Part shown: in pieces, positions 24,910 through 39,273 of the stretch | Numbering within the stretch: position 1 is the stretch's first letter | Layout of the letters: each line of letters opens with the position of its first letter | Assembly: GCA_017548605.1 (NCBI GenBank) | Contig: JAFYZT010000037.1 | Location: forward strand, 52,353-116,352 | Source of the DNA: Prevotella sp. | GTDB taxonomy: Bacteria > Bacteroidota > Bacteroidia > Bacteroidales > Bacteroidaceae | Direction of reading: 5' to 3' | DNA length: 64,000 nt | The notes under the pieces: generated by a model | Databases searched by the model: none | What the model saw: only the letters and a program-made list of their open reading frames with translations | What the model was told of the DNA's origin: nothing | Position numbers and translations under genes: made by a program

Positions 24910-25957
24910 CCCTTTTACAACATCCTTGCTCGGGTGGTTCGACCACCATGGCCGCGATTTGCCATGGCGCGGTATCCAGGATCCTTACCGCATTTGGCTG
25001 AGTGAAATTATCCTCCAACAGACTCGTGTGGTGCAGGGTATCGATTATTGGAGACGTTTCGTTGACCGTTTTCCCGATGTGCAGTCACTCGCCGAGGCTT
25101 CCGAAGATGAGGTGCTCAAGTTATGGCAGGGACTGGGCTATTATTCGCGGGCGCGTAATCTGCACACGGCAGCACAGCAGATTGTTGCGCTGGGACATTT
25201 TCCCAACACTTTTGAAGAAATCAAACAACTGAAGGGCGTGGGCGACTATACGGCTGCGGCCATCGCCTCATTCGCCTTCCATCTGCCCGTGGCGGCAGTT
25301 GATGGCAATGCTTACCGCGTGCTGGCGCGTGTCTTCGGTATCGACACACCTATCAACACAACACAAGGAAAACGGTTGTTCACTGAACTGGCACAGTCTC
25401 TGCTGGCTCTCGACCGACCGCACGACTTCAACCAGGCGATGATGGATTTCGGGGCTACATTATGTACACCATCGTCGCCTCAATGTGTGGATTGTCCTTT
25501 GGCAGATCGCTGCGAGGCTTATATAAATAATAAGGTAGCCATATTGCCTGTCAAGGAGAAAAAACTCGAGGTAAAAACACGTCATTTCATCTATATTTAC
25601 CTTCGATGCCGGGGACAGATTGCTTTGCATCGCCGTCCCGCTGGTGATATTTGGCAAGGTCTTTACGAGCCGCCCATGGTGGAGTGGGAGAGGGGTGCGG
25701 CTCCTTCAGAGGCCCAGGCATTGCAAGCCATTGAAAGATTCCTTGCCGCGCCTTTTACATCAGTTCGTGTCGTCTGTCGTGGTCTTCGTCATGTACTCAC
25801 CCACCGTGTCATCATCGCCGATTGTTTCCTCGTGGAAACAGATATGCGTCCCTCCTTGTCCGATGATTATATCTGGATAGATGAGTCAACCCTTGACCGC
25901 TACGCTGTTCCCCGCTTGGTGGAAAGAATGCTGGATGAAATAGTGAATGTTGGATGA
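24896..25957 (+). CDS. mutY: A/G-specific adenine glycosylase
   Basis: Base-excision repair glycosylase that removes adenine opposite 8-oxoguanine. Of its 353 residues, the catalytic Glu lies in LSEIILQQTRV near residue 43, the helix-hairpin-helix is LKGVGDYTAAAIASFAF, and the catalytic Asp is in AAVDGNAYRVLAR. The 4Fe-4S ligands follow the C-x6-C-x2-C-x5-C spacing (CTPSSPQCVDCPLADRC). The C-terminal 110 residues form the NUDIX-like domain that reads 8-oxoG. The start overlaps the TerB-like gene by 14 nt. Confidence 0.95.
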   Translation: MPRCDPFTTSLLGWFDHHGRDLPWRGIQDPYRIWLSEIILQQTRVVQGIDYWRRFVDRFPDVQSLAEASEDEVLKLWQGLGYYSRARNLHTAAQQIVALGHFPNTFEEIKQLKGVGDYTAAAIASFAFHLPVAAVDGNAYRVLARVFGIDTPINTTQGKRLFTELAQSLLALDRPHDFNQAMMDFGATLCTPSSPQCVDCPLADRCEAYINNKVAILPVKEKKLEVKTRHFIYIYLRCRGQIALHRRPAGDIWQGLYEPPMVEWERGAAPSEAQALQAIERFLAAPFTSVRVVCRGLRHVLTHRVIIADCFLVETDMRPSLSDDYIWIDESTLDRYAVPRLVERMLDEIVNVG

Positions 25958-26060
25958 CTTTCCTCTCCTTTTCCAAATTAGACTAATTTTCCCCCTCCTT
26001 TTCCAAATTAGACTGACTTTTCCCCTCCTTTTCCAAAGGAGGGGGAGGGGTGGTTTGTCA
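25956..26060 (+). repeat. Tandem CCCCTCCTTTTCCAAA units ending in hairpin repeat variant
   Basis: Three head-to-tail units (25956-25980, 25981-26010, 26011-) of GACT...CCTCCTTTTCCAAATTA. The last continues into GGAGGGGGAGGGGTGGTTTG and completes an inverted repeat. It starts at the mutY stop codon and belongs to the second subfamily of the genome's GC-rich hairpin repeat. Confidence 0.7.
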
Positions 26061-26479
26061 AACACAGTCCCAACCTTATTCTCTCACAGATAATCTCTGA
26101 CAGCATATCCTTGGACGATTCAAAAAAGATACATTCTGGCAAAATATAGACTATAATTTGCCAAAATCAAGAGGAAAAAGCCAGTCTTGGCTAATTATAA
26201 TGAAATATGGAAATACGTGCAATGATGAAGTTATATGCGATTATCTGATAAAATGTGAAAAAAGTAAGTATTTATTTGCATTTAAAAAAAATAATAATAT
26301 ATTTGCCAACAACATTGCCAGTCCCAAAAGGGAAAGGGTATGTTGACATCGATGGAATGAGGCAGATCCACTTATGGCGATGCCTCGAAAGGCGTTTACG
26401 GACATTCATTCTGTGTTCTCAAACTTAGCAACTTTGAACTGTCTCACAGAACTAATGCAACGGAACGTCTACGTGGGTG
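26061..26479. other. Non-coding stretch at the left edge of the accessory island
   Basis: No credible gene. Short open frames at 26158 and 26374 lack family resemblance, promoters and plausible starts. The sequence becomes clearly AT-richer from about 26100 and may contain the 5' part of a non-coding transcript that ends at 26644. Confidence 0.5.
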
Positions 26480-26542
26480 TATTATATCCCTACGTGTACT
26501 ATACATTAATAATGTGTAGTGTGTGTGGTGTAGTATATAATA
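26480..26542. other. Long imperfect palindrome
   Basis: 63-nt hairpin: TATTATAT (26480-26487) pairs with ATATAATA (26535-26542), CTAC with GTAG inside it, and ACTATACATTA with TAATGTGTAGT around a single A at the apex, with one G-U pair. It lies within the gene-free stretch before the Sel1 gene. Confidence 0.6.
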
Positions 26543-26607
26543 TCACTTGGCGTGGGCTGGCTGCGTTGCTTATCCTTGAGACAGGGCAATGCTAAGGCCT
26601 GAGAACA

Positions 26608-26644
26608 GGGATGGGCGAAAGTAGAAACTCCCATGCCTTTTTTT
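26608..26644 (+). terminator. Probable intrinsic terminator upstream of the Sel1 gene
   Basis: GGGATGGG (26608-26615) pairs with CCCATGCC (26630-26637) except for one mismatch, followed by seven T. It lies 66 nt before the Sel1 start and would end a transcript coming from the gene-free region to its left. Confidence 0.55.
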
Positions 26645-26710
26645 ATTTCCCAGACTTTAAACAATTGTTCATGCTGATTTAGGGAGTTTAGAAGGCATTT
26701 AGAACAGGTT

Positions 26711-28012
26711 ATGTCAAATATGAAAAAGTTAATCCTTCTATTATTATTGCCCATTCTTATAGTGTGTACAGCAAAAGGTCAAGAAGAAACAGCAGTAGAA
26801 CAGTACAATCTTGGCATTGAAGCCTTCAATGCTCAGAGATATGAAGAGGCAGCAAAATGGTATCTCAAAGCAGCAGAACAAGGACTTGCTGTGGCTCAAT
26901 ACAATATTGGGCTCTTGAATTATAATGGTCAAGGAGTCCCGCAAAACTATGAAGAGGCAGCAAAATGGTATCTCAAAGCAGCAGAACAGGGTTTTGCTGA
27001 GGCTCAAAACAATTTAGGGGTCTTGTATGATAAAGGTCAAGGAGTCCCGCAAAACTATGAAGAGGCAGCAAAATGGTATTTCAAAGCAGCAGAACAGGGT
27101 CATGCTGGGGCTCAATGCAATTTAGGGAACTTGTATTATAAAGGTCAAGGAGTCCCGCAAAACTATAAAGAGACAGCAAAATGGTATCTCAAAGCAGCAG
27201 AACAGGGTCATGCTAGGGCTCAATACAATTTAGGGGTCTTGTATTGTGAAGGTCAAGGAGTTCCGCAAAACTATAAAGAGGCGGCAAAATGGTATCTCAA
27301 AGCAGCAGAACAGGGTGATGCTGTGGCTCAATACAATTTAGGGCTCTTGTATGATAAAGGTCAAGGAGTCCCGCAAAACTATAAAGAGGCAGCAAAATGG
27401 TATCTCAAGGCAGCAGAACAGGGTCATGCTGGGGCTCAATACAATTTAGGGAACTTGTATTATAAAGGTCAAGGAGTTCCGCAAAACTACAAAGAGGCGG
27501 CAAAATGGTATCTCAAAGCAGCAGAACAGGGTTTTGCTGAGGCTCAAAACAATTTAGGGGTCTTGTATGATAAAGGTCAAGGAGTTCCGCAAAACTACAA
27601 AGAGGCGGCAAAATGGTATCTCAAGGCAGCAGAACAGGGTCATGCTGTGGCTCAACACAATTTAGGGAACTTGTATTATAAAGGTCAAGGAGTTCCGCAA
27701 AACTATAAAGAGGCAGCAAAATGGTATCTCAAGGCAGCAGAACAAGGAATTGCTGACGCTCAATTCAATTTAGGGCTCTTGTATTATGATGGTCAAGGAG
27801 TCCCGCAAAACTATAAAGAGGCAGCAAAATGGTCTCGTAAGGCAGCAGAACAGGGTCATGCTGGTGCTCAATACAATTTAGGAACCTTGTATTATAATGG
27901 TCAAGGAGTCCCGCAAAACATCTCAGAAGCAGAGAAATGGTTTCAGAAAGCAGCAGGTCAAGGCAACAACCAAGCAAAAGAAGTTTTGCGGAAAATTCGT
28001 AAGAACAAATAA
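26711..28012 (+). CDS. Secreted Sel1-repeat protein
   Basis: Protein of 433 residues with a signal peptide (KKLILLLLLPILIVCTAKGQ) and ten complete 36-residue Sel1-like repeats (residues 44-403, consensus YKEAAKWYLKAAEQGHAxAQYNLGxLYYKGQGVPQN) plus a degenerate eleventh and a basic tail. Sel1 repeats form an alpha-solenoid that scaffolds protein-protein contacts; the product is predicted periplasmic. An ATG at 26720 is an equally good start. The repeats are almost identical at DNA level, so copy number may vary. It is followed 12 nt later by the J-like gene, so the two form an operon. First gene of the accessory island. Confidence 0.88.
   Translation: MSNMKKLILLLLLPILIVCTAKGQEETAVEQYNLGIEAFNAQRYEEAAKWYLKAAEQGLAVAQYNIGLLNYNGQGVPQNYEEAAKWYLKAAEQGFAEAQNNLGVLYDKGQGVPQNYEEAAKWYFKAAEQGHAGAQCNLGNLYYKGQGVPQNYKETAKWYLKAAEQGHARAQYNLGVLYCEGQGVPQNYKEAAKWYLKAAEQGDAVAQYNLGLLYDKGQGVPQNYKEAAKWYLKAAEQGHAGAQYNLGNLYYKGQGVPQNYKEAAKWYLKAAEQGFAEAQNNLGVLYDKGQGVPQNYKEAAKWYLKAAEQGHAVAQHNLGNLYYKGQGVPQNYKEAAKWYLKAAEQGIADAQFNLGLLYYDGQGVPQNYKEAAKWSRKAAEQGHAGAQYNLGTLYYNGQGVPQNISEAEKWFQKAAGQGNNQAKEVLRKIRKNK
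26840..27919 (+). repeat. Ten tandem 108-bp units inside the Sel1 gene
   Basis: Each unit encodes one 36-residue repeat and contains nearly invariant blocks such as GGTCAAGGAGT(C/T)CCGCAAAA and GAGGC(A/G)GCAAAATGGTATCT. Differences cluster in three or four variable codons. The low divergence points to recent expansion or ongoing homogenisation. Confidence 0.9.
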
Positions 28013-28024
28013 GCACATAGAACT

Positions 28025-28969
28025 ATGATAACAGATATTTCTAACAATCCGTTTAGCATTTTAGGCTTGCCCGCCAATGCGACGAGAGTAGAGATTGACC
28101 AATGTCACAATGAGTTAATAGAGGGTCTGAAACAACAAGGGCAGTCCTATGAATCTTTAGAAGAAATCGATAAAGCCTATCAGGCAGTAATCTCACCAAT
28201 TCATCATTGGCATCATGCTTCTTTCTGGTTTGTCTGTGTCTCAGATAAAGATCGACATGCGCTACAATACGTAGAAGAAGGATTATATGAAAAGGCTATC
28301 GAAATGTGGGAGGAAAAACTGAACTATGCAAGTCTGCATAACATGATGCTTTGTTATGTTTTGATGGGAGAGGATGAAATCCATAACTACGCAAAGGCTT
28401 TCTACTATGCGAGATGTCTTTTCCTTGGAGGGAGTAATTTTGAACTGTTTACAGACTGTGTGGGTGAATCGGGCAAAGAGGCGGTAGATGAGGCTAAAAT
28501 ATTTCTGGACGTAGTGTTTTCACAAACAACGGCAAAGAAATCCACCCTTTACGCATTGTTGGGAAACAAAGAATGGATGGATTATGTAAGGGGGAAATGG
28601 GTGGATGCCGACGAGGCTGATGCTGGAGCAGAGAATATGAGAAACATCATCAACATGGCTGAACATGCAAAGCAAGCAGAAAAAGCGGAGAGATCCAAGA
28701 AATCTTACTTTTGGTGGATATGGACGTTACTATTCCCCGTTTACCTGTATTTTAATCATTGTTATCAAAACAGCCATAAGCCAAAACCGTTTGAATCGCC
28801 AACGGAGACAATACAAAACCACCTGGATTCACTTCAACGAGTTCGTGAAAAAATGTTGGACACTGCTCATATCAAAAGAGAGTTGAGAAAAATAGATGAA
28901 AAGCATGAAGCAGAATACCATAGTTTGAAAGAAAAAATAGAGGAGAGAAAAAAACGGCTAAAAGAATAG
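28025..28969 (+). CDS. J-domain-like membrane protein lacking HPD
   Basis: Protein of 314 residues. The N-terminus (NPFSILGLPANATRVEIDQC) strongly resembles the first helix of a J domain, but the HPD tripeptide needed to stimulate Hsp70 is absent. A helical middle part with TPR-like pairs (YVEEGLYEKAIEMWEEK) follows. One membrane helix lies at about residues 233-253 (FWWIWTLLFPVYLYF), then a charged coiled-coil tail rich in Lys and Glu. No signal peptide. Probably cotranscribed with the Sel1 gene. Function is unknown; an adaptor role is an inference. Confidence 0.7.
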   Translation: MITDISNNPFSILGLPANATRVEIDQCHNELIEGLKQQGQSYESLEEIDKAYQAVISPIHHWHHASFWFVCVSDKDRHALQYVEEGLYEKAIEMWEEKLNYASLHNMMLCYVLMGEDEIHNYAKAFYYARCLFLGGSNFELFTDCVGESGKEAVDEAKIFLDVVFSQTTAKKSTLYALLGNKEWMDYVRGKWVDADEADAGAENMRNIINMAEHAKQAEKAERSKKSYFWWIWTLLFPVYLYFNHCYQNSHKPKPFESPTETIQNHLDSLQRVREKMLDTAHIKRELRKIDEKHEAEYHSLKEKIEERKKRLKE

Positions 28970-29037
28970 CAAGAGTAAAAAACGGGGAAGCCGAAAACCA
29001 TAAAGAGTAGGCGTTACACAAATATACAATCATTATC

Positions 29038-29193
29038 ATGAAAAAGATACTTTTTGTTACATTCGCATTGATGCTTACGACAAGCACTGTTGCCAAACAG
29101 AGTTGGCCAATGGGTAGTTGACCGGAGCAGAACTGGCCTCTGAATTTAGTGGACAGCATTGAAGTCACAATGCTATTCAGTCCAACAATATGA
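29038..29193 (+). pseudogene. Small secreted WP-repeat peptide with in-frame TGA (wpp1)
   Basis: A start at 29038 gives signal peptide MKKILFVTFALMLTTSTVAK followed by QSWPMGS and a TGA at 29119-29121. Reading on in the same frame gives PEQNWPLNLVDSIEV and ends at TGA 29191-29193. If the internal TGA were TGG, the peptide would have Trp-Pro at residues 23, 28 and 33, an exact 5-residue period. It therefore looks like a WP-repeat peptide with a nonsense change at a Trp codon, or a recoded TGA. A second member of the family is at 37620. Its last 17 nt overlap the convergent TPR-CHAT gene. Too short for routine gene finders. Confidence 0.55.
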
Positions 29194-32038
29194 ATGCAGC
29201 CCAGTATTGAGGGTCATTGTACTTACCATTATCAACTATTTGTAGGTGTTGTTGTGCGTTGTGGAAAGCTTCATGCTTCGACTGCCCTTGCAAAAGATTG
29301 TCATAGAAAGTCGTCATGAGGATTTGCGTGGCATTGTCGTCTACCTCCCAGAGACTCATGACAAGAGTCTGTACCCCTGCTTTCTTGAAACCGCGTTGAA
29401 GGCCAAAGACACCCTCGCCTTGGTTGATGTCGCCCAAGCCCGTTTGACAGGCAGAGAGTACAACAAGGTTGATACCTCGCAGGTCGAGATACGATATTTC
29501 CTGTGCAGTGAGTACGCCATCATCGGCTTCCATGGGGAGGTCTTGGCCTTTCAACTCATTCACCCCCGCCATGAATAATCCGCTGCGTGTTAGGGCTTTA
29601 TTTTCTAGTTCAGCTGCACTGCGACTGTCTTCCAGTCCAAGAAATAGGAAACTTTCCTGACGTTTCCAATAGTCGGCCTCTTCCTCTTTCCAGTAGAAAC
29701 CGTGAGTGGCGATGTGAAGGATTCTCGGACGATGTGCGGAAAGTTGTTTCACCGATGTTTCCGTGGCATCCTTCCCCGTAATTGCATATGCTTCTTGCTT
29801 CTTTTTGTCAAACAATTCTTTGATTCCTTTAACTTCATCTAAGGTATAAGGCAGGTAAGGTATTTTTGCTTTTGCTCCACGTATGCCGAGGCTGTCAATG
29901 AATGCATGGTGAAGAGCAACAGAAATGTCTCCTGTCCCTTCCTTATGAGTGTAGTCGCTGATGACGACATCATAATCAACTCCACCATATAATACAGCAT
30001 TTCTCTTTTCTCCTTTGGTATGGATAGGGGTGGTTGCCATTATTCCTTCTCCCCTTTCTTTCAAATCTATCACCTCTCTAGTTGATGATAGTCTATAAAT
30101 ATCAAATTCTTCCATCCCCGGAGAATATTCTATCCCGATATTATGAAGAACTCCTGAAGGCGAGAAATAGATACGTCGGATACCCTGTAATTCCTGTTGC
30201 AAAGGTTGCCACACCAAGGTTGTCTGATCAGGACAATAGTAAAACTTCGTGTCGTTCAACTCTTGTAGTTGCCGTTGTTCAAACAATGGGATGAACTTCG
30301 GTTCCTTGTCATCCTTGCGTAAGGTGAGAGCGGCCACCATCGTACTGTCAGAGTAATAAACTGGGAAGGAAAGAAACTCTATTGCTATCTCATCGGGCTC
30401 GAGTGCTTGTTGAACATCCTGCCATGTTATGCGCAGTTTCTGTGTGAAGTCTCCGTTGGCATTTGAAATTTTCATCAATGCTTGTTCCAAGTTTTTAACA
30501 ACTGTAGCCAACGAATCACTGTTAATAGGACGCTTTTCAATTGGTGTTTCTTTTAGCCGTTGTAATAGCAAACGATTATTTCGTAATACTTCGAACATAC
30601 GTAGTGCATCTTCATCACCGCTCCCTTGTATCAGACGATTCATCTCAATATCAGTAGAGAGAAGCAGCCCTTTGGCGAAAAGTGCAGACTTGTCGTAAAG
30701 GTCAGGAGCAGTTGTGGCATTAGAACGATATGTGAAGAAAGGATAAAAGTCTGTGAACTGATTTATGTATTTCTCCCAATACATTGAACGTTGTTCGGAC
30801 GTTATTCCTGAAAATTGTTTGAGGATATGAGACTGGATAATTGATATGTTCTCGCTAAAATAGTGAAGAGCTTGAGAATAATCATCTAAAAAATAATTTA
30901 ATGTGACAATTTGGGTAAGAGATGACGCATAAAGAGGATGATTATTGCCTAAAATCTCCCTTCGAATGCTCATTGCTTTAGTGGCCAATTCCAAAGCACT
31001 GGTGATTGAACTAATCGCTTCTTCCTCATCTTCGGCGACAAATCCGTATAGGAGTAGATAATTGGCGCGGTTTGCTAAAAATGTTGCATAAATGGGGTGT
31101 TTTTCACCATATCTTGTCAGGAGTTCTTCATTGTAGAATTCTATTGCTTGATTGTTATTGTATAAGGCTTCAACACAAGCTGCACGACTAAAAATCTTTG
31201 ACCACTCTCCATCATACCATGACGTACTAAACAACTCCTGTTTCCATAGTTCATAAGCATAATTCCACCAAAACGTACCTAAATTATCATTAGAAATTGG
31301 ATACATCTCTATCGCCTTATTGATAATTTCATAAACGTAGCCATATTTTACGAATAATTCTTTTAAAAGTATAATGGCATTACTTCCCAATTCTATAGCC
31401 TTTTTGTAGTCGCCAAGATTAGAATAACATAATGCAAGATTATTGATAGTGACTGCAGAATTATACTTTGACTGAGCAGATTCTTCCAATGTGAAAATAT
31501 CCAACGCTTCTGTTCCAAATATCAATGATTTATGGTAGTCACCTAAATGAGAAATATATAAAGCGAGGTTCGATAAACATTGGGCATAAAGCGCATGATT
31601 TTCCCCCAATATATCCTTTCTTATTTCCATAGCCTTGGTGCAAATATCAACGGCCTCTTTGTAATCTGCATTTTGATAGTAATAATCGGCAAGGGTTACG
31701 AGTGCTGAAGCGTAATCAGAATCATTTTCCTTTAGTAATTCTTTTAATATTTCTACCCTCTGCTTACCTAATTCCACGGCTTTATCATACTTTCCGAGAA
31801 AAAAATAGTAACGGGCGAGAGAATAAAGAATATTTGTGGCGTAGTTTATGTCGTTTTGACTATGTAGTTTTCCATATCCTTCTTTATACAACTCTAAAAG
31901 ACGTATTGCTTCTTGGTAATTACCATGTTTGGCGGCACTATCGCTTTGTTGATACCATCCAATAAGTTGTTCTTCGGTCTGACTATACAAAGATGCAGAA
32001 GATAAAAAAATGAAGAATAGGAAGATGATTCTTTGCAT
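29177..32038 (-). CDS. Secreted TPR-CHAT caspase-like protease
   Basis: Protein of 953 residues. A signal peptide (MQRIIFLFFIFLSSASLYSQ) is followed by tetratricopeptide repeats over about residues 25-420 (for example ALVTLADYYYQNADYKEAVD), then a linker and a CHAT domain from about residue 600. The catalytic dyad is intact: His779 in HIATHGFYW and Cys864 in VVLSACQTGLGD. CHAT proteases are clan CD (caspase-like) cysteine peptidases that act in regulated proteolysis and self/non-self systems. Most defence CHATs are cytoplasmic; this one carries an export signal and so is predicted periplasmic or surface-exposed. Last gene of the leftward caspase-sigma-antisigma-CHAT operon, 100 nt after the anti-sigma gene. 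Confidence 0.92.
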   Translation of the reverse strand: MQRIIFLFFIFLSSASLYSQTEEQLIGWYQQSDSAAKHGNYQEAIRLLELYKEGYGKLHSQNDINYATNILYSLARYYFFLGKYDKAVELGKQRVEILKELLKENDSDYASALVTLADYYYQNADYKEAVDICTKAMEIRKDILGENHALYAQCLSNLALYISHLGDYHKSLIFGTEALDIFTLEESAQSKYNSAVTINNLALCYSNLGDYKKAIELGSNAIILLKELFVKYGYVYEIINKAIEMYPISNDNLGTFWWNYAYELWKQELFSTSWYDGEWSKIFSRAACVEALYNNNQAIEFYNEELLTRYGEKHPIYATFLANRANYLLLYGFVAEDEEEAISSITSALELATKAMSIRREILGNNHPLYASSLTQIVTLNYFLDDYSQALHYFSENISIIQSHILKQFSGITSEQRSMYWEKYINQFTDFYPFFTYRSNATTAPDLYDKSALFAKGLLLSTDIEMNRLIQGSGDEDALRMFEVLRNNRLLLQRLKETPIEKRPINSDSLATVVKNLEQALMKISNANGDFTQKLRITWQDVQQALEPDEIAIEFLSFPVYYSDSTMVAALTLRKDDKEPKFIPLFEQRQLQELNDTKFYYCPDQTTLVWQPLQQELQGIRRIYFSPSGVLHNIGIEYSPGMEEFDIYRLSSTREVIDLKERGEGIMATTPIHTKGEKRNAVLYGGVDYDVVISDYTHKEGTGDISVALHHAFIDSLGIRGAKAKIPYLPYTLDEVKGIKELFDKKKQEAYAITGKDATETSVKQLSAHRPRILHIATHGFYWKEEEADYWKRQESFLFLGLEDSRSAAELENKALTRSGLFMAGVNELKGQDLPMEADDGVLTAQEISYLDLRGINLVVLSACQTGLGDINQGEGVFGLQRGFKKAGVQTLVMSLWEVDDNATQILMTTFYDNLLQGQSKHEAFHNAQQHLQIVDNGKYNDPQYWAAFILLD

Positions 32039-32138
32039 GGATTGTGAGCCTTTTTATGTTTTGTTAAAAATCAGCTATTGAATTATTCTCTTAATCCTCT
32101 TTTAAAGGTTAAGGTTGATATGTAATAAAAAAGTGGCA

Positions 32139-32795
32139 TTACCAATTTTCTATTTCATTCAAGAGTTTCTTTATTTGGGTATTATCATTGGCCAAAGGTT
32201 TTAAATATTCTTTTGCCTTTTCCAGATTCTTGTCTTTGATATAGGCCATGGCCAGATAATAGGCTATATCATTTTCCATATAGCTATAATCAATATAATT
32301 GACATTTTCGGACAAGATATGATTATAGATGGTTTGAAGTCTTTCAATGATGGGTTCCATGTTTTTTTCCGTGCCTATCTTGTTGAATAAACTAGACAAC
32401 TCTTTTACGACCGCTTCATTATCACCTCCTCTGGAATTGGTCATTTCGTATGAAGAATAGTAGTCGATAAACAAGTCATCTATCTCATTTATCTTTTGGA
32501 TGTGTCTGATACCAAAAGTCAGCAATGTTAAAGCTGCGACGGATGCGACCCATCTGATGATTTTGGCGGTCTTAGTTCGTGAGACTTTTTTAGTCGCTAA
32601 CACCTCATCAACCACCTCGCTATCTTGTCGGACTCTTTCGTCGTTCATCTCCATAACCATCATAGCCATCATAAGAGTTTCCTTGCGGAGAACCTTGTCG
32701 GTTCTCAGGTCTGCAAGAAAGGTTTCTCTTTCTCCTGGGGACATCTGTCCAGTAAGATAACGTTCTATGCGTTCACTTTGATTGTTATTCTCCAT
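32139..32795 (-). CDS. Membrane anti-sigma factor-like protein with helical sensor domain
   Basis: Protein of 218 residues. The N-terminal cytoplasmic 78 residues (ERIERYLTGQMSPGERETFL) have the length and pattern of anti-sigma domains but no zinc-binding His/Cys set. One membrane helix lies at residues 79-98 (IIRWVASVAALTLLTFGIRH). The 120-residue extracytoplasmic part is helical, with a TPR-like end (YYLAMAYIKDKNLEKAKEYL). It overlaps the sigma factor gene by 11 nt, a typical sigma/anti-sigma arrangement. It would hold the sigma factor until a periplasmic signal, possibly cleavage by the neighbouring proteases, releases it; that mechanism is inference. Confidence 0.75.
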   Translation of the reverse strand: MENNNQSERIERYLTGQMSPGERETFLADLRTDKVLRKETLMMAMMVMEMNDERVRQDSEVVDEVLATKKVSRTKTAKIIRWVASVAALTLLTFGIRHIQKINEIDDLFIDYYSSYEMTNSRGGDNEAVVKELSSLFNKIGTEKNMEPIIERLQTIYNHILSENVNYIDYSYMENDIAYYLAMAYIKDKNLEKAKEYLKPLANDNTQIKKLLNEIENW

Positions 32796-33366
32796 AAATC
32801 TTTGCTTCTAATTCTAGATACTTCTCCTTAAAAGAATCACGACACCTATATGCTGTGGCTTTGGCTGTGTTGGCGTTAGCCAGTCCGTTCATTTCAGCGA
32901 TGACATCCCAACTCAATCCATCGGCATAATGACTCCAAAGTAATTGTTTACATTTGTTGGTCATTGTTTTGAGGATAGAATGCACCAATTTGGCTTTCCT
33001 TTCCATTTCTTTGGCTTCTTCTTCATCAGAGCATATCTCCAATACTTCTTGTACATTTGCCAAAGAGATGCCGTATCTTGTTCCCATGCCCGAACCATTG
33101 ATTTCAATGATAGGTATTGTTCCTTTCTTGCCCAATATCTTTAACGATTGATTGATACAAATTTTTTTAAAATAGGAGCGAAGTTTGCCAAAATCTGTGA
33201 ACTTCTTGGAGGAGATATTGTGGAAAAGAGCCAAAGAAGATTCTTGATATATATCTTCTATATCGTCGCTTGACAATTTGGAATAGCGGAGTCGTAGGAA
33301 TGCCATGATGGCACTCCTATTGTCAGCGATGAACTGGTTAAATTTCGGTCCTTTTGTGCCTTTCAT
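32785..33366 (-). CDS. ECF-type RNA polymerase sigma factor
   Basis: Protein of 193 residues. Region 2 is at about residues 15-80 (MAFLRLRYSKLSSDDIEDIYQESSLALF) and region 4 at about 125-180 (TNKCKQLLWSHYADGLSWDVIAEM with a helix-turn-helix). The linker is short, as in extracytoplasmic-function sigma factors. It lies 9 nt after the caspase-like gene and overlaps the anti-sigma gene by 11 nt. No second copy of a distinct, non-housekeeping promoter was recognised in the island, so its regulon is unknown. Confidence 0.88.
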   Translation of the reverse strand: MKGTKGPKFNQFIADNRSAIMAFLRLRYSKLSSDDIEDIYQESSLALFHNISSKKFTDFGKLRSYFKKICINQSLKILGKKGTIPIIEINGSGMGTRYGISLANVQEVLEICSDEEEAKEMERKAKLVHSILKTMTNKCKQLLWSHYADGLSWDVIAEMNGLANANTAKATAYRCRDSFKEKYLELEAKIYGE

Positions 33367-33375
33367 ATTGAGAAG

Positions 33376-34266
33376 TTAAAAACTGGCCTCTGTTACTAAT
33401 GTTTGTGTCCGTGGCCAAAGCCCACTTATCTTGACGGCTCGTTCCACGTAGTTCTTGAAAGTTTGGGCATCTTTTCCCAACGAAGACATTAATGAGAGAA
33501 CAAGATAAAGATGATACGATAAAGCACCATATACCTTACCCGTAACCAAGATTTCAGTGTTTCTTTCACGTGAACGGCAAGCTTCAAGGAACAATACTGG
33601 TGAGAGATCATTACCCTTCTCAACTGAATAATGTTTAACATTTGTTCGTGGTGGATTATACTGATGACTAGGGTTTGGAGTTAGCCCTTCGCTCGTTCCC
33701 CTCACCATTTCCATACCTATGCGTGACGTCTCGCCAGCGTGACAGGCATCCATAATAACGTAGAGCATCCCTGTTGGCCCCATATTGGTGCGAAGTTTTT
33801 TGAAATAGCCATTCAACTCATCGTCAGTGAGGTGCTTTTCTCCATGATAGCCTTGAATATCAAATTCTCTCCCAGCATCGACTGGCACCAAAGACTCGTC
33901 CCAACCATCCTGTTCGTCATCTTTTGGAAAACCTTTTATCAAACCGTCTTCCACTGGTTGTCCGTGACAGGAGAAGTGAAGGTAGACAATGTCACCTTTC
34001 TTTGTGTTGTTGATGAAAGAAGTGAGGGAAGTCTTGATTCCTTTATAGGTGGCCTGTTCATTGATGATGCTTAAGACTTGAAATCCTTTTTGCTGTAGCA
34101 TATCTTTCAAAAGAATCACATCCTCTGCACCATGGATGTCGTTCCATGCCGTGCGGCCATTTGCCTTGTAGGTAGATATGCCCACCATGAAAGCCCTTTT
34201 ACGTTGAGCATCAATAGCCATGGGAAAAGCCAAGAGCACCATCAAGAGAATCAGTATCTTTTTCAT
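33376..34266 (-). CDS. Secreted caspase family (peptidase C14-like) protein
   Basis: Protein of 296 residues from the ATG at 34266; 20 further in-frame upstream codons are rejected because they cross the promoter. Signal peptide MKKILILLMVLLAFPMAIDA, then a p20-like caspase domain: RAFMVGISTYKANGRTAW, His101 in LHFSCHGQPVED, an acidic DDEQDGWDESLVPVD segment, and Cys175 in IMDACHAGET. The dyad is intact, so an active cysteine peptidase is likely; bacterial members usually cleave after Arg or Lys. First gene of the four-gene operon, with a promoter abutting the start codon. Predicted periplasmic or secreted. Confidence 0.92.
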   Translation of the reverse strand: MKKILILLMVLLAFPMAIDAQRKRAFMVGISTYKANGRTAWNDIHGAEDVILLKDMLQQKGFQVLSIINEQATYKGIKTSLTSFINNTKKGDIVYLHFSCHGQPVEDGLIKGFPKDDEQDGWDESLVPVDAGREFDIQGYHGEKHLTDDELNGYFKKLRTNMGPTGMLYVIMDACHAGETSRIGMEMVRGTSEGLTPNPSHQYNPPRTNVKHYSVEKGNDLSPVLFLEACRSRERNTEILVTGKVYGALSYHLYLVLSLMSSLGKDAQTFKNYVERAVKISGLWPRTQTLVTEASF

Positions 34267-34271
34267 ACTTG

Positions 34272-34302
34272 CAAATATAAGGATTATTATCGAAAAAGAC
34301 AA
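34272..34302 (-). promoter_or_regulatory. Promoter of the caspase operon, abutting the start codon
   Basis: Minus strand: -33 TTG (34302-34300), a 20-nt spacer, -7 TATATTTG (34279-34272), then only five bases (CAAGT) before the ATG at 34266. Transcription should begin at or next to the A of ATG, so the mRNA may be leaderless. Confidence 0.7.
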
Positions 34303-34446
34303 GCAGAAAAAGCTATATTTTAACACTACAGTTTAATAATTTATGGTTATAATCTTTTTCATTTTTCGTGTTTACTTTTTTAAGGTAAATGGTATTAAGA
34401 TAATGAAAAGGCATTCTTGCCAAAATAGATACAATAAACATTGATT

Positions 34447-34866
34447 ATGAAAAATAAATTAATTATTGAAGTCCTTTTAATTCTTTTTTGCTTTTCCTAT
34501 AGTGAAATGGTGTATGCAAGGCTGAGGATGAAGGTGAGATATGAACAAGTAGACGCTTTTAGAAGGCGCATAGCAGTAGGTACAGGTGTAGCCAGTTCCC
34601 ATTTAGAAAAGGTAGCGAGACGTAATAATCCTTATATCTCAACAAATAAGAGTCATACGTCTTGTATGAAAGATTCCGATTCCATTAACGAGAATCAAGC
34701 GTATGGAGAAAATAATACGAAGCCCAGCCATGACACTACGAACTATGTGGTATCTTCGTTTAACCATTTTCAAGAGCCAAATCCGCCATTATGGCCATGG
34801 ACATTGATGAGTATCGGTGTGGTTGGAGGCTTATTTCTTTATGAACAACGTAAGACTAAACAATAA
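34447..34866 (+). CDS. Small envelope protein with N- and C-terminal hydrophobic segments
   Basis: Protein of 139 residues from the ATG at 34447. N-terminal signal or anchor (KLIIEVLLILFCFSYSEMVY), a basic stretch with RLRMKVRYEQVDAFRRR, a Ser/Asn-rich middle and a C-terminal membrane helix (WPWTLMSIGVVGGLFLYEQ). No family recognised. It starts the rightward half of the island, divergent from the caspase operon across 180 nt, and is followed 5 nt later by the next small gene. Confidence 0.65.
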   Translation: MKNKLIIEVLLILFCFSYSEMVYARLRMKVRYEQVDAFRRRIAVGTGVASSHLEKVARRNNPYISTNKSHTSCMKDSDSINENQAYGENNTKPSHDTTNYVVSSFNHFQEPNPPLWPWTLMSIGVVGGLFLYEQRKTKQ

Positions 34867-34871
34867 GAACA

Positions 34872-35273
34872 ATGAAAGTGAATAACAGATTTATAATCGC
34901 GGTAATTCTCGGCTTACTAATTATACAAAGATTAACAAGGGAAGATGATTCGTCTTCATCGTTATCAAAACAACAGCCGCGATCAGAGTACCATATTGTT
35001 GATTATGAAAAACGAGTAGTGGATGGCGTAATGTCGAAAAGAACTCCACAGAATGCGCCTTTACCCCTACCTACGCCCTCGTTACCAAAGATAGAATTGC
35101 CTAAAGTAGACATCTCTTCAACTCGTCAGGATCTTCAACATTATCTTCAGGAAGTTAAAGACAGCATCTCACACATACATCTAACGGAATCTGCCAGCAG
35201 AAATAATGAAACAGGCACTCCCGTCATTAATAGTGATACTGTCTCGATAAGTGCCCTGGACACCATAAAATAA
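34872..35273 (+). CDS. Small membrane-anchored protein with proline-rich linker
   Basis: Protein of 133 residues. One N-terminal hydrophobic helix (FIIAVILGLLIIQ), then an extracytoplasmic part with a serine run, a proline-rich linker (PLPLPTPSLPKIELPK) and a hydrophilic tail. No family recognised. It sits 5 nt after the previous gene and 22 nt before the next, in one operon. Confidence 0.65.
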   Translation: MKVNNRFIIAVILGLLIIQRLTREDDSSSSLSKQQPRSEYHIVDYEKRVVDGVMSKRTPQNAPLPLPTPSLPKIELPKVDISSTRQDLQHYLQEVKDSISHIHLTESASRNNETGTPVINSDTVSISALDTIK

Positions 35274-35295
35274 AAAACTAATTAAACAAAAAGTT

Positions 35296-35868
35296 ATGAG
35301 AAAGTTTTTATTTTATGTTTTGTTATTCTTCGGCTTGTCATCATCCGTTGATGGCCGAGAACATGATAAGGTGCCATTCATTGGTGACTGGGCAGGTGTG
35401 TTATCCTTAAGTTATGAATGTACCTTGTGTATCCATCTTCAAATAACACAAGATGATAGTACGCATGTGAAGGTTCAAATACAACCGTTTATCGAGGGGG
35501 AATATTACCCCGTCCAGTCTTATGATAGACCAGATATGATAGCCGAGACTTCTGACTCGCTCATGTTCGGCCATAGCATGGGTACGGTGGAAGAGGTTGG
35601 GGTATACGAAGGCATTGATTATACATCTTATGAGTTATTATGTTGTTATACGGTCACTTCGTCAGAACTTGGCATGTTATGTGAGTGTCATTTTTACACT
35701 TTTTATTATGACGCGAATAATAATCTGGTAAAAATACAAAATAATGATGAATTGTGGCGGTGTTTCAACCTTGTGCGTGTGGACAGTAACATTCATTGGT
35801 TTGAAACAGAGGACAATGAATTTCCTAATGATTCGAATAATCCTATGAACATCGTTCTCAAAAAATGA
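35296..35868 (+). CDS. Secreted protein of unknown function
   Basis: Protein of 190 residues with a signal peptide (MRKFLFYVLLFFGLSSSVDG). The mature part is acidic and probably beta-rich (DKVPFIGDWAGVLSLSYECT) with six cysteines, some paired in sequence (CTLC, CC, CEC). Its layout resembles small lipocalin-like beta-barrel domains, but no family is certain. Its stop overlaps the start of the next gene (ATGA). Confidence 0.65.
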   Translation: MRKFLFYVLLFFGLSSSVDGREHDKVPFIGDWAGVLSLSYECTLCIHLQITQDDSTHVKVQIQPFIEGEYYPVQSYDRPDMIAETSDSLMFGHSMGTVEEVGVYEGIDYTSYELLCCYTVTSSELGMLCECHFYTFYYDANNNLVKIQNNDELWRCFNLVRVDSNIHWFETEDNEFPNDSNNPMNIVLKK

Positions 35869-36923
35869 CGATTATGAAAAACTTATTATTATTCTTATTA
35901 GTATTAGTATGGTGCGGCATAGTGAATGCACAATCGCCCATGCTCACGGACAAAGTTATGGATATGGAATCCATGTGTCAAAAAACAGTCATGCAGGCAA
36001 TCCTCCCAGTAGAGGCAGAGGTGGCTTTCACATCCGTTATTATCATTGAAACGGAGACTGGGAAGGTCCTGGCCAACCTCAATCTATCTCGTTCAGGGGA
36101 TGAATGGGTAGAAGACGATGACCATGAAGTAGCGGCTAATCATACACGCCTTGCCTTGTACCTTGCTCTTCTTGAGTCGGGCGCAACACCATCCGATAGA
36201 TTTTATTCATCAGGTTTGTATGCCGACGAGTCGGGGGTATTCGTCAAGGATAGAAGTCGGAGTCATGGTGGCTATGGGAATATACGCTTGGCTGAGGCTG
36301 TAACCCGGAGTGATGTCTCACTCATTGAGGCTTGCGCCCAACAGTTCGACCTGTCTATGGGAAAGTACGCTTATTATTTTAGCCTGACTGGCTTTCGTCT
36401 CAGCAAAATACCTAAAGAAAAAAAATACGAAGATTTCCTTACTGAATATGAGGGCACGGCATGGAATCCAGCGGTAGTCTTGGGATATCAAAGCAAGGTG
36501 ACCCCATTGGAAATGGCTAGATGGATAGAAGGTGTCGCCAACCACGGGGTTGTCAAATCCGATTCTGAGGTTCTGTGTTCTATAAATTGTGGTAGTCAAC
36601 ATATAGACTCACTTCAATTTGTCCTCCGTGATAATGTTCTGTATGGTACAGCCAAAAAGGTTTCTTCAAATGAAATCCCAGTATCGGGTGCATGCTTAAT
36701 CTCACCGGAAAATGGACAGGGGTATTTGACAGCCACATTCCTTGGCTATACCCCAACATACACAATTGTTGTGAACGTTGAGGGCAATCTTCCAGTCATT
36801 CGCAGCATACCTGTTGATGTGGCTCGAAAAGTCGTTAATTGGATTGCAAAGCATCGTCTTGGAATGAATAATCAAACTAATATGTACGAACATAAGCGGA
36901 AATTGCCTCGAGGCGTTGACTGA
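35865..36923 (+). CDS. Penicillin-binding transpeptidase fold protein with degenerate active site
   Basis: Protein of 352 residues with a signal peptide (NLLLFLLVLVWCGIVNAQ); ATG 35874 is an alternative start. The layout matches the PBP transpeptidase domain: TETGKVLANLNLSR, LALYLALLESGATPSDRF, the hallmark TPLEMARWIEGVANHG (residues about 213-228), and a C-terminal FLGYTPTYTIVVNVEG strand. All three catalytic motifs are lost: SxxK is replaced by HTRL (93-96), SxN by RSD (148-150) and KTG by YGT (260-262). It is therefore probably a pseudo-enzyme that binds or senses rather than cross-links. It lies in an operon with small envelope proteins of the island. Confidence 0.75.
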   Translation: MTIMKNLLLFLLVLVWCGIVNAQSPMLTDKVMDMESMCQKTVMQAILPVEAEVAFTSVIIIETETGKVLANLNLSRSGDEWVEDDDHEVAANHTRLALYLALLESGATPSDRFYSSGLYADESGVFVKDRSRSHGGYGNIRLAEAVTRSDVSLIEACAQQFDLSMGKYAYYFSLTGFRLSKIPKEKKYEDFLTEYEGTAWNPAVVLGYQSKVTPLEMARWIEGVANHGVVKSDSEVLCSINCGSQHIDSLQFVLRDNVLYGTAKKVSSNEIPVSGACLISPENGQGYLTATFLGYTPTYTIVVNVEGNLPVIRSIPVDVARKVVNWIAKHRLGMNNQTNMYEHKRKLPRGVD

Positions 36924-36967
36924 TATTGAACTTTATTATTATCAATATATAATTGGAGGATCGTCAA

Positions 36968-37192
36968 ATGAAAAAGTTTTTACAATTTTTGGGCATTTCG
37001 GTAGTTTTGGCAATCTCGCTTTACGTCGAGCAACGGTGGTTCACGGGCTTTTCAGCAATCGTTGGATTGAGCCTGCTTGTATGCCTGGGTTTTTTATCAG
37101 AAAAATTTCTTGACAGATGGGTCGCCGTTGGTTTTTTTTATTGCTTGCTCTCGGTTCAGTACTTAATCAAGCCATCGGTTTACGAAAGATAG
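36968..37192 (+). CDS. Small multi-pass membrane protein (possible first part of a frameshifted gene)
   Basis: Frame of 74 residues with three hydrophobic stretches (FLQFLGISVVLAISLYV, FSAIVGLSLLVCLGFL, VAVGFFYCLLSVQYLI). A GGAGG sits 8 nt before the ATG, a real Shine-Dalgarno match that is unusual in this genome. The third helix runs over a T8 tract (37132-37139); a -1 shift there would continue into the next frame and give one 3-TM protein with a soluble C-terminal domain. No family recognised. Confidence 0.6.
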   Translation: MKKFLQFLGISVVLAISLYVEQRWFTGFSAIVGLSLLVCLGFLSEKFLDRWVAVGFFYCLLSVQYLIKPSVYER

Positions 37193-37572
37193 AGCATGCT
37201 AACGGGTCTGTGTCTATTGTCTCTTCTTTTTACCCTCTGGGGGTTCGCCTTGGCACAGGTGAAGAAGTTGACACGGTAATGAACTTGGCAAGAGGTTTCA
37301 AGAGTGACCATTCTGTACAATCTGAAGACATGTATGTTCTAGTCCAGGAATCAGGCAAGATCCTGCTGTTCAGTTCGCAAGAAAAGATTCTGGAAGGAAG
37401 GAACCTGAACTTCGAACTCAGAAAGATGGGTGTCGATAGCATACATATTTGCACGTATATAGATTCTAACGGCAGACGAAGAGAGGCCGATCTCTATGGC
37501 CGCGACTTGAATAGCCATAAGTATGAACCTCATATCCAATTTGATTACAGCGATTATAATCCCTCATTATAA
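37117..37572 (+). CDS. Envelope protein of unknown function, possible C-terminal part of a frameshifted gene
   Basis: Frame of 151 residues overlapping the preceding gene by 76 nt. If started at ATG 37117, it has a signal-like helix (WFFLLLALGSVLNQAIG) and a soluble domain (VDTVMNLARGFKSDHSVQSE, then a beta-rich part and a Tyr/Asp-rich end). The size of the overlap and the T8 run make it likely that the two frames are one gene, separated by slippage, sequencing error or phase variation. Confidence 0.55.
   Translation: MGRRWFFLLLALGSVLNQAIGLRKIEHANGSVSIVSSFYPLGVRLGTGEEVDTVMNLARGFKSDHSVQSEDMYVLVQESGKILLFSSQEKILEGRNLNFELRKMGVDSIHICTYIDSNGRRREADLYGRDLNSHKYEPHIQFDYSDYNPSL
37132..37139 (+). other. 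T8 homopolymer at a possible frameshift site
   Basis: Eight T preceded by G and followed by ATTGC, in the overlap of two frames encoding alternative third membrane helices. One extra T would fuse the frames. Confidence 0.6.
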
Positions 37573-37619
37573 TTAGCCCCTTGTAGGGAATTTTCAATAC
37601 TAATTTAATTTTTTTAATT

Positions 37620-37835
37620 ATGAAAAAGGCAATTTTTTCGGCGGTGTTATTCGCGATAGCGATAACCGTCTCCGCTTTAAACAGCGGATTCGCAAAGTTC
37701 CCATTTTCCGTGGAAGAATCGGCATGGCCCAATTCTGCGTGGCCGACAGATAAGGCAGATGCCAAGTGTCCTGCCTGGCCGGTGGAAAAAGCCGGTTTAA
37801 AGTTCCCGGCCTGGCCGGCGTGGCCAACCCCATAA
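37620..37835 (+). CDS. Small secreted Trp-Pro repeat peptide (wpp2)
   Basis: Peptide of 71 residues with a clear signal peptide (KKAIFSAVLFAIAITVSA). The mature part has five Trp, at residues 36, 41, 53, 65 and 68, each within Ala-Trp-Pro. Four Lys and one Cys (residue 50) divide these into short segments. There is no resemblance to a named family. It is preceded by an AT-rich leader and followed by a strong hairpin. Shared features with the interrupted peptide at 29038 are the MKK start, signal peptide, WP pairs and 5-residue spacing. It could be a structural or signalling peptide, a bacteriocin-like effector, or a substrate of the island's caspase-like proteases; none of these is shown. Confidence 0.7.
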   Translation: MKKAIFSAVLFAIAITVSALNSGFAKFPFSVEESAWPNSAWPTDKADAKCPAWPVEKAGLKFPAWPAWPTP

Positions 37836-37851
37836 TGGGCTCCTTTCGTAT

Positions 37852-37877
37852 CCTCCAGCACCAGATGGTGCTGGAGG
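37852..37877 (+). terminator. Perfect hairpin after the WP-repeat gene
   Basis: CCTCCAGCACCA / TGGTGCTGGAGG, a 12-bp stem with a 2-nt loop (or a 10-bp stem with a 6-nt loop). It has no T-run, so it may be a transcript-end stabiliser rather than a classical terminator. Confidence 0.55.
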
Positions 37878-37989
37878 AACGGTGAAAGCCACATTTTTCC
37901 CGGCTTCCATAGCGGTGAGAAAATCCATATCTTAACTTCTGAAAATGCCCTTTAATAGGAATGCACTTCTAAGAAACAAGACAAAAGAA

Positions 37990-39273
37990 CTAAAGTGCGT
38001 TTGCCGCATATAAGGGAATGTTGGTCATCCATTCTTGCTCGCGGTAGTCGGACAAGGAAAAGCGTATGCCGTGGAGGCTGGGGTGGCGTTCAACAAAGGA
38101 GCGTAGGCTTCGGGCTTTCAGGTTCTCCTCCGCCTTCACCTCTATGGGGATGACCTTTCCTTTCTTCTGCATGAGGAAGTCGATCTCTCCCCTGGAATTC
38201 TCTGCCGACCAATAGTAAAGGAGGTCTGCCGATTGAATTAGTTGCTGGCACACATACTGCTCGGTGAACGCCCCCTTGTAGGTGGAAAAGAGCGCGTCGC
38301 CCTCAATGAGAATCTCCGATGGGAGTTTGGCCATTGCGGAAAGAAGGCCGACATCAACCAGGAACAATTTGAATGCCGAGAAATCCTCGAAAGCGTTCAG
38401 CGGGAGTTCCCCGCTTTTCGTCCGGTTCACCTTGTAGATGAGTCCTGCATCTTTCAGCCATTCTATGGCTAACTCGAAATCCTTGGCACGTGCTCCTTGG
38501 CGAAGCAAGCCATATAGGAATTTCCTGTTTTCCTTGGATAACTGCCCGATGATGGAGTTCCATACAATTCGGATACGGGGCACCTGCTCTTTCGGCGCGT
38601 GTTTGGAGAAATCGCTTTCGTAGGACTGCAAGATGTTCTGTTGGATGCGCCTCACTTCATCGAGGTCTTTGTGCTGCACATAGGAGTTGACCGCTTCGGG
38701 CATTCCTCCTGTGAAGTAGTACGTTTTCAGGTAGTGTATGACACGGTCTCTCACAAATAACAGTTGATGCCAGTCTTGCTTATCGAGAAGATCCACTATG
38801 TCTTGTTCACCATGGGCCTTCAGAAATTCCGTGAACCGTAGTGGGTAGAGGTCGAGGAAGTCCACTTTTCCCGCGGGGAAAGAGTCGTTTTGATGCAAGG
38901 TGATGCCGAGGAGCGATCCGGCTGCAATGACCGGCTGTTGCCGGGCATTCTCGCAGAAATACTTGAGCGAGGTGAGTCCTCGTGGAGCCGCCTGTATCTC
39001 GTCGAAGATGAGTAGGGTATGTTTATCGATGGCAGTGTGAGCACGAAGGCCTATTGCCGTTAGGATTCGCTGTATGTTGAAGTCGTTTTCGAACACTTTC
39101 CGCAATATCTCGTCTTCCTCGAAATTGACATATATGAAACGGTCGAATGCCCGTTTGGCGAACTCCTTGATGAGCCATGTCTTGCCCACTTGGCGAGCCC
39201 CTCTCACGATCAGCGGCTTTCTTTCTGGACTGTTCTTCCAGATGTATAATTGGTTGATACTTTCTCTTTCCAT
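37990..39273 (-). CDS. AAA ATPase with DUF4143 C-terminal domain
   Basis: Cytoplasmic protein of 427 residues. The AAA_14-type ATPase has Walker A GARQVGKTW near residue 27 and Walker B TLLIFDEIQ near residue 90. The C-terminal DUF4143 region ends with GEIDFLMQKKGKVIPIEVKA, which has the E-ID...E-K spacing of PD-(D/E)xK nuclease-like folds. The family is abundant, often multi-copy and frequently mobile in Bacteroidales; its cellular role is unresolved. Monocistronic, with a promoter at 39339-39308 and three dyad repeats at 32-bp spacing just upstream of it. Confidence 0.92.
   Translation of the reverse strand: MERESINQLYIWKNSPERKPLIVRGARQVGKTWLIKEFAKRAFDRFIYVNFEEDEILRKVFENDFNIQRILTAIGLRAHTAIDKHTLLIFDEIQAAPRGLTSLKYFCENARQQPVIAAGSLLGITLHQNDSFPAGKVDFLDLYPLRFTEFLKAHGEQDIVDLLDKQDWHQLLFVRDRVIHYLKTYYFTGGMPEAVNSYVQHKDLDEVRRIQQNILQSYESDFSKHAPKEQVPRIRIVWNSIIGQLSKENRKFLYGLLRQGARAKDFELAIEWLKDAGLIYKVNRTKSGELPLNAFEDFSAFKLFLVDVGLLSAMAKLPSEILIEGDALFSTYKGAFTEQYVCQQLIQSADLLYYWSAENSRGEIDFLMQKKGKVIPIEVKAEENLKARSLRSFVERHPSLHGIRFSLSDYREQEWMTNIPLYAANAL

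What the first reader, a model, noticed from the sequence alone, without database searches (positions are those of the whole stretch)
26711..37835. AT-rich island pairing two secreted caspase-superfamily proteases with a sigma/anti-sigma switch and WP peptides
The leftward operon encodes a secreted caspase-like protease, an ECF sigma factor, a membrane anti-sigma factor and a secreted TPR-CHAT protease, both proteases with intact His/Cys. It is flanked by small Trp-Pro peptides and a set of small envelope proteins including a pseudo-transpeptidase. Known CHAT and caspase defence systems are mostly cytoplasmic; here both proteases carry export signals, suggesting an envelope-stress or contact-triggered proteolytic pathway controlled through regulated anti-sigma release. 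I know of no described system with this combination.
Basis: partly seen in the sequence, partly recalled or inferred. Interest (0 to 1): 0.8.

Follow-up and report, generated by a model that had tools for sequence, protein, structure and literature searches.

The report
Exported caspase and CHAT sigma switch
A Prevotella-like bacterium carries a conserved four-gene unit that may let two caspase-like proteases outside the inner membrane switch on a dedicated transcription factor, much as some CRISPR immune systems do inside the cell.

Summary
The leftward operon (29177-34266) is real: exported metacaspase-like caspase, ECF sigma factor, membrane anti-sigma-like protein, exported TPR-CHAT protease. 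It is a conserved unit: 67 of 80 related caspase loci carry all four. Sigma plus anti-sigma without the caspase, often beside a TPR-CHAT gene, extends across Bacteroidota. A two-box motif precedes the caspase operon and, in some relatives, a separate CHAT gene; the window's genome has one exact copy, here. The anti-sigma protein keeps an Arg-Gly 22-40 residues beyond its membrane segment (66 of 71), in a loop before a TPR-like domain: a candidate cut site. Best reading: a protease/anti-sigma/sigma switch on the envelope side that amplifies itself. The TPR-CHAT model resembles Craspase Csx29, separase and the CHAT-bearing anti-sigma DdvA. Neither cleavage nor sigma dependence has been shown. 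New variant of a known kind.

The parts
33376..34266 (-). CASP: exported metacaspase-like C14 protease (ORF opens with GTG at 34326; ATG at 34266 likelier)
   Evidence: Pfam C14 9.1e-13; relatives in PDB are metacaspases and GSU0716; H121/C195 (GTG numbering) conserved 80/81 and 81/81, the exception a gap
32785..33366 (-). SIG: ECF sigma factor
   Evidence: TIGR02937 46.2 bits, above cut-off; best profile match among solved structures SigW
32139..32795 (-). ASF: predicted membrane anti-sigma factor; N-terminal helices, one membrane segment, TPR-like C-terminal domain
   Evidence: within 200 bp of SIG on the same strand in 66 of 80 loci; AF2 model pLDDT 88.1; C-terminal part resembles Fis1 TPR, best Foldseek E 0.09; NF052375 only 16 bits
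32427..32432 (-). codons R122-G123 of ASF: candidate cleavage site in the loop between membrane helix and TPR-like domain
   Evidence: R 51/53, G 50/53; RG in 66/71 after the membrane segment
29177..32038 (-). TPR-CHAT: exported separase/Csx29-like protease
   Evidence: CHAT E 1.1e-55; H779/C864 conserved 69/71 and 70/71, the rest gaps; AF2 pLDDT 80.8; fold matches to Csx29, separase, DdvA
34370..34396 (-). two-box motif AATACC-N11-AAAAGTAAAC upstream of the caspase operon: candidate SIG promoter
   Evidence: only exact match in the 3.25 Mb genome; same motif before CASP and CHAT in part of the relatives

Best explanation
It is an envelope-side proteolytic sigma switch. SHOWN by sequence: four conserved linked genes; CASP and TPR-CHAT with export-like N-termini and intact catalytic dyads; ASF with one membrane segment; in part of the family, a shared motif upstream of CASP-SIG-ASF and of a separately transcribed CHAT. 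INFERRED: at rest ASF holds SIG at the inner membrane. A signal outside the inner membrane (envelope damage, an attacking toxin or phage, contact) activates one of the exported clan-CD proteases, most likely the metacaspase-like CASP, which cuts ASF after the conserved basic residue R122 in the loop outside the membrane. The rest of ASF is then removed by housekeeping proteases, as with RseA, and SIG transcribes its own operon and the CHAT gene, so the response feeds itself. TPR-CHAT is either the activator/sensor or the effector protease; within this clade it is the more exchangeable part.
For: 67 of 80 caspase loci carry all four genes; before recheck SIG lay within 200 bp of CASP on the same strand in 65 of 80 and ASF within 200 bp of SIG in 66 of 80. 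CASP, SIG and ASF co-diverge over 59 loci (r 0.82-0.89, shuffle maximum 0.20). Motif: 38 copies at 45 loci (L130-L174), reversed control 0; in 15 genomes, chosen because most carry it at the locus, 31 copies against 7 of the control, only 3 of the 31 away from such genes. RG in 66/71 after the membrane segment, 0/71 in the 45 residues beyond, 13/71 in the 50 before it. R122 lies in the coil between membrane helix and TPR-like domain. CASP conserves D69, S119, D193, which match the basic S1 pocket of metacaspases as I recall it. Precedents: Csx29 cleaves Csx30 and so relieves its inhibition of a sigma factor that has motifs in its own locus (PMC10028731, passages); the TPR-CHAT model's best Foldseek matches are the transmembrane anti-sigma factor DdvA, named in the PDB a CHAT domain-containing protein, then separase and Csx29.
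Against: No cleavage, binding or expression data exist. ASF's N-terminal domain is not recognised by any family model above cut-off and the fold search did not match a known anti-sigma domain. In loci L175-L209 the motif is absent upstream of CASP (0 of 34 testable); in L130-L174 it precedes CASP directly in 26 of 45, and opposite-strand CHAT in 9 of 32. So self-regulation is suggested for one part of the family only. A basic residue after the membrane segment is also seen in CASP-less ASFs, so CASP may not be the cutter. The 80 loci came from a profile built from 7 linked caspases and 1 unlinked one, which favours linkage. The DdvA match has a low TM-score (0.22), and no CHAT sequence match to DdvA, Csx29 or separase is significant.
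Confidence: 0.5

Rival explanations
1. TPR-CHAT, not the caspase, is the protease that cuts the anti-sigma factor (as Csx29 cuts Csx30); the caspase is a later-added effector or amplifier induced by the switch.
Against: CHAT divergence follows SIG and ASF only loosely (r 0.33 and 0.42) while CASP follows them tightly (0.82 and 0.89). The Craspase paper says its TPR-CHAT lacks the separase residue for P1 Arg and cites cleavage after L407 (PMC9729208, passages).
Confidence: 0.3
2. ASF is not cut at all: ligand or partner binding to its TPR-like outer domain releases SIG, and both proteases are just regulon members that degrade damaged or foreign envelope proteins.
For: The outer domain is a confidently predicted TPR-like fold that could be a sensor; the proteases sit in the operon and behind the motif, as effectors would.
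Against: Conserved basic residue in an otherwise variable loop; precedents for proteolytic release.
Confidence: 0.17
3. One reading: WP peptides, pseudo-transpeptidase and small envelope proteins are targets or partners of the same switch.
For: They lie in the same AT-rich stretch and the first of them diverges from the same intergenic region.
Against: No homologue at the 80 loci, few or none in the family for the two searched, no exact motif copy before them.
Confidence: 0.03

Closest known systems
Type III-E CRISPR Craspase module (Csx29 TPR-CHAT, Csx30, CASP-sigma/RpoE)
   Same: TPR-CHAT protease, a sigma inhibitor, an ECF-type sigma factor, and sigma motifs in its own locus (PMC10028731, passages); similar overall TPR-CHAT fold
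   Different: No CRISPR-effector-sized gene beside the operon in the window (largest ORF at 24.0-40.5 kb is TPR-CHAT itself); proteases look exported; ASF is a membrane protein; an added metacaspase-like protease; no sequence match of TPR-CHAT to Csx29 in the PDB searches
DdvS/DdvA sigma/anti-sigma pair of Myxococcus xanthus, linked to a type III-B CRISPR-Cas system
   Same: ECF sigma with a transmembrane anti-sigma that bears a CHAT domain (PDB name; best Foldseek match of this TPR-CHAT)
   Different: There anti-sigma and CHAT are one protein; here separate genes, with a caspase added. The paper (gky475) was not held; its content is recalled, and its title and the link to III-B come from a passage and citation in PMC11237760
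RseA/DegS/RseP envelope stress pathway (E. coli)
   Same: Membrane anti-sigma cut to free an ECF sigma (recalled; mentioned in PMC10028731)
   Different: DegS is a serine protease (recalled); the parts are not homologous as far as known
ECF54 sigma factors with CHAT neighbours; EACC2-caspase systems with ECF sigma and TPR proteins
   Same: Genomic pairing of ECF sigma with CHAT or caspase genes (PMC8999054 and PMC8195603, passages)
   Different: ECF54 is described as controlled without an anti-sigma factor; EACC2 systems are built differently, and the passages seen do not mention export
Dma/Das and BcpT-induced sigma/anti-sigma pairs of Bacteroides
   Same: Bacteroidota sigma with envelope-spanning anti-sigma; the BcpT-induced pair responds to a toxin, likely through envelope stress (PMC9308784 passages, PMC13088901 abstract)
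   Different: Anti-sigma reaches the outer membrane; no caspase is mentioned in PMC9308784

Membership tests
ECF sigma factor | match above a curated sigma-70/ECF cut-off | tested here: met
   TIGR02937 46.2 bits, cut-off 42.9; the two Pfam sigma-region models are below cut-off
Anti-sigma factor (ECF type) | gene beside SIG, single membrane segment | tested here: met
   66 of 80 loci; inner hydrophobic segment in 60 of 71; model
Anti-sigma factor (ECF type) | recognised anti-sigma domain | tested here: inconclusive
   NF052375 16 bits against cut-off 100; fold search shows only the TPR part
Anti-sigma factor (ECF type) | binds and inhibits its sigma | not testable with these tools
   no binding assay
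C14 caspase/metacaspase | C14 domain over cut-off with His/Cys dyad | tested here: met
   48.9 bits against 21.4; H and C conserved
CHAT protease | CHAT domain over cut-off with His/Cys dyad | tested here: met
   189.6 bits against 24
Type III-E CRISPR Craspase | Cas7-11/gRAMP beside the TPR-CHAT | tested here: not met
   largest ORF overlapping window 24000-40500 is the 953-aa TPR-CHAT; no Cas model was run, and 9 of the 80 relatives' loci have ORFs over 1300 aa, not all identified
Type III-E CRISPR Craspase | sigma factor of the III-E family | tested here: not met
   NF041236 25.6 bits, cut-off 100
Type III-E CRISPR Craspase | TPR-CHAT fold | tested here: met
DdvA-type anti-sigma | anti-sigma and CHAT in one polypeptide | tested here: not met
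   two genes here
Known anti-phage defence system | PADLOC model match | tested here: inconclusive
   CASP 27.7 bits to 'caspase'; CHAT none at E <= 0.5

The most novel reading that the evidence does not exclude
A CRISPR-free, membrane-facing relative of Craspase: a bacterial 'periplasmic caspase cascade' in which an exported metacaspase cuts a membrane anti-sigma factor at a conserved Arg-Gly when the envelope is attacked (for example by phage or toxin), and the freed sigma factor turns on the proteases and local immunity genes. In one Prevotella MAG (L130) and a second one (G434) the same motif precedes a HEC-02A/B defence-candidate pair.
Probability: 0.2. Interest if true: 0.87.

Novelty: new variant of a known kind. 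Interest (0 to 1): 0.68.

Why it matters
Protease-to-sigma switching is known from CRISPR Craspase inside the cell and from envelope stress. A Bacteroidota module that joins both ideas, with caspase-fold proteases apparently outside the inner membrane, would tie prokaryotic caspases, whose roles are largely unknown, to a predicted substrate (R122 of the anti-sigma), a predicted promoter and a measurable output. It could also show a CRISPR-free setting of the Csx29-Csx30-sigma parts list, and give rumen and gut Bacteroidota a new envelope-sensing pathway.

Tried and rejected
WP peptides as part of the system: rejected. Sel1 protein 26711-28012: homologue in 3 of 80 loci (L145, L195, L200) and 1 of 10 others; 28025-28969: none. 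Mobile or phage origin: no close relatives of the caspase in plasmids (64 records, all under 60% identity), phages (1 at 24.6%) or IMG/VR (1 at 27%); no tRNA; I did not search for integrases. The site between the genes read by eye as mutY and acyl-CoA dehydrogenase is variable in five genus mates (about 0.4-2 kb against about 14 kb here), which fits an insertion. Sequence link of TPR-CHAT to Csx29, separase or DdvA: no significant PDB sequence match (DdvA at E 1), only fold; DdvA is not among the 50 rows shown by the second aligner. A second motif for loci L171-L209: none clearly above shuffles. First mirror-tree run gave nan for CHAT; repeated on 59 of the 67 loci, those with CHAT over 600 aa. 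An early note listing L097 as SIG+CASP was wrong: no SIG model hit there. Papers: ten searches; none of the listed titles, abstracts or passages seen described this gene set; the library lacks most subscription papers.
Full report
WHAT IS THERE. The leftward genes are, in order of transcription, a C14 caspase (33376-34266, GTG-extended to 34326), an ECF sigma factor (32785-33366), an anti-sigma-like membrane protein (32139-32795) and a TPR-CHAT protein (29177-32038). SIG and ASF overlap by 11 bases; CASP and SIG are 9 bases apart. GC is 36-45% from 26 to 38 kb; the rest of the window is mostly 48-57% with a few other dips to 40-46%. A DNA search of 40 genomes of the genus (own included) found for window 26703-39527 only CHAT paralogues, Sel1 repeats and short weak pieces. 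In five relatives the flanking genes, read by eye as mutY and an acyl-CoA dehydrogenase, are about 0.4 to 2 kb apart, here about 14 kb.

CONSERVATION. SIG was found (E <= 1e-6) in 8 of 101 family genomes, own included. Of the 7 others, 6 have CASP, SIG and ASF together, and all 7 have ASF and CHAT within the fetched stretch. A scan of GTDB genomes with the caspase alignment A1 gave 143 relatives, of which the tool kept the best 80, mostly labelled Prevotella, Prevotellaceae, Bacteroidaceae or Bacteroidales MAGs, a few labelled otherwise (Lachnospiraceae, Bacilli). Of these 80: SIG 68, plus 5 on recheck = 73; ASF 71; CHAT 70; all four 67. Of the 13 without all four, L142, L146, L147, L163, L173, L175, L177 and L188 are cut by a contig end, L198 and L201 have CASP and CHAT only, and L136, L137, L199 look like lone caspases (L136 and L199 near contig ends). 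A1 was built from 7 linked caspases and one unlinked one, so this count favours linkage. In an order-wide caspase search (295 genomes, 41 places in 35 genomes) I looked at 12 of the 41 places: four (window, L082, L083, L084) have the whole set; L087 has SIG, CASP and CHAT without an ASF hit, L090 SIG and CASP, L086 and L088 CASP and CHAT; L089 is a 4 kb contig; L013, L095 and L097 show neither SIG nor CHAT hits beside CASP.

The wider family does not need the caspase. Among the 30 order-level ASF loci returned (own included), 27 have SIG, 15 CHAT and 4 CASP in about 3.4 kb. Phylum-wide, 55 of 345 genomes have an ASF match; of 29 such loci looked at, 24 have SIG, 7 CHAT, none CASP. I ran no control for how common CHAT is near unrelated ECF genes.

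TOPOLOGY AND ACTIVE SITES. By a hydropathy rule, N-terminal signals are present in 75 of 80 CASP and 59 of 70 CHAT, in 1 of 71 ASF and 0 of 68 SIG; 60 of 71 ASF have an inner membrane segment. Catalytic residues: CASP H121 80/81, C195 81/81; CHAT H779 69/71, C864 70/71, the exceptions being gaps. CASP also keeps D69 and S119 (80/81) and D193 (81/81); that these match the Arg/Lys pocket of metacaspases is recalled. Its PDB relatives by profile are metacaspases and GSU0716.

THE ANTI-SIGMA LOOP. In 53 aligned ASFs, R122 is kept in 51 and G123 in 50, within a variable stretch. In 71 ASFs, an RG follows the most hydrophobic 19-residue segment by 22-40 residues in 66; the other five have R or K followed by D, S or G there (read by eye); RG is absent from the 45 residues beyond in all 71 and occurs in the 50 residues before the segment in 13. 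The AlphaFold2 model (pLDDT 88.1) shows helices 3-68, a long helix 76-112, a coil 113-126 with R122, and a five-helix domain 127-216, which resembles the TPR protein Fis1, though no hit reached E 0.001. A basic residue at a similar place is seen by eye in the CASP-less ASFs printed (L018, L091-L094, and L096); with so short a list this is weak.

THE MOTIF. Gapped-word counts upstream of CASP gave ATAC-N16-GTAAC in 28 of 80 sequences, against 10 for the best word pair of one shuffled set. The form WATACY-N11-AAARGTAAMM appears upstream of CASP, of opposite-strand CHAT, and of two neighbouring genes (467 and 192 aa) in close relatives. It occurs 38 times at 45 loci (L130-L174) and once at 35 loci (L175-L209), reversed control 0 and 0. 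With a 9-13 base spacer it precedes CASP in 26 of 45 of the first group and 0 of 34 of the second, and opposite-strand CHAT in 9 of 32. I then searched the 15 genomes that hold 16 of the 80 loci, picked mostly because the motif was already seen there: 31 matches against 7 for the reversed pattern; 26 of 31 lie in the loci, 2 in a contig of G434 with a HEC-02A/B pair, 3 elsewhere. Because of that choice, the informative part is the scarcity elsewhere, not the hits at the loci. In the window's genome the only exact match is 34370-34396; with one mismatch there are 6 more against 4 controls. On a sigma tree of 73, 28 have the motif within 1 kb upstream of CASP: 24 of them in one clade of 31 (support 0.68), the other 4 being the window and its near relatives. 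This is what a sigma-specific promoter would give; it is not proof.

COEVOLUTION. Over 59 loci the distance matrices correlate: CASP-SIG 0.82, CASP-ASF 0.89, SIG-ASF 0.89; with CHAT 0.33-0.47; shuffles never above 0.203. The window's genome also has five TPR-CHAT paralogues (34-55% identity) and a caspase (47%) with no SIG or ASF hit in the stretches fetched.

REGULON AND DEFENCE HINT. In L130 and in G434 the motif precedes an ATPase gene followed by a partner; in L130 these match PADLOC HEC-02A (E 7.5e-133) and HEC-02B (E 1.8e-42), and the G434 genes are 78-90% identical to them. This is the only link to defence, from two genomes.

VERDICT. A real, conserved module that I found in none of the papers seen; the mechanism is inferred. 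The WP peptide, pseudo-transpeptidase and other right-hand genes are passengers as far as the evidence goes.

Noticed in passing
window 39527-39571: A 30-40 base repeat that recurs in this genome and others of the genus, sometimes as inverted pairs about 200-550 bases apart: MITE-like.
   Followed up: no
L138-L170 upstream of CASP (e.g. L139:6981-9892): A divergent set of small genes beside the caspase operon in many loci: DUF4407 membrane protein (328 aa, 26 loci), 188 aa (26 loci), 190 aa (20 loci), 180 aa (18 loci).
   Followed up: partly
L130:13759-15367 and G434 contig 35 (L241, L245): HEC-02A/B defence-candidate pair behind the same promoter motif.
   Followed up: partly
L119-L123 (own genome): Five further TPR-CHAT genes with no SIG, ASF or CASP hit in the 14-19 kb fetched around them.
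   Followed up: partly
L130 and L156; L132 and L157: Two caspase-sigma systems in one genome: L132 and L157 share a genome, and L156 lies in the same assembly as L130.
   Followed up: no
L205:7721-9778 and relatives: A PIF1-like helicase family lies downstream of CASP in 12 loci.
   Followed up: no
L132:12114-13007: A Peptidase U49 gene between ASF and CHAT.
   Followed up: no
window 25957-39908: Interval between the genes read as mutY and acyl-CoA dehydrogenase varies among genus mates: possible insertion hot spot.
   Followed up: partly
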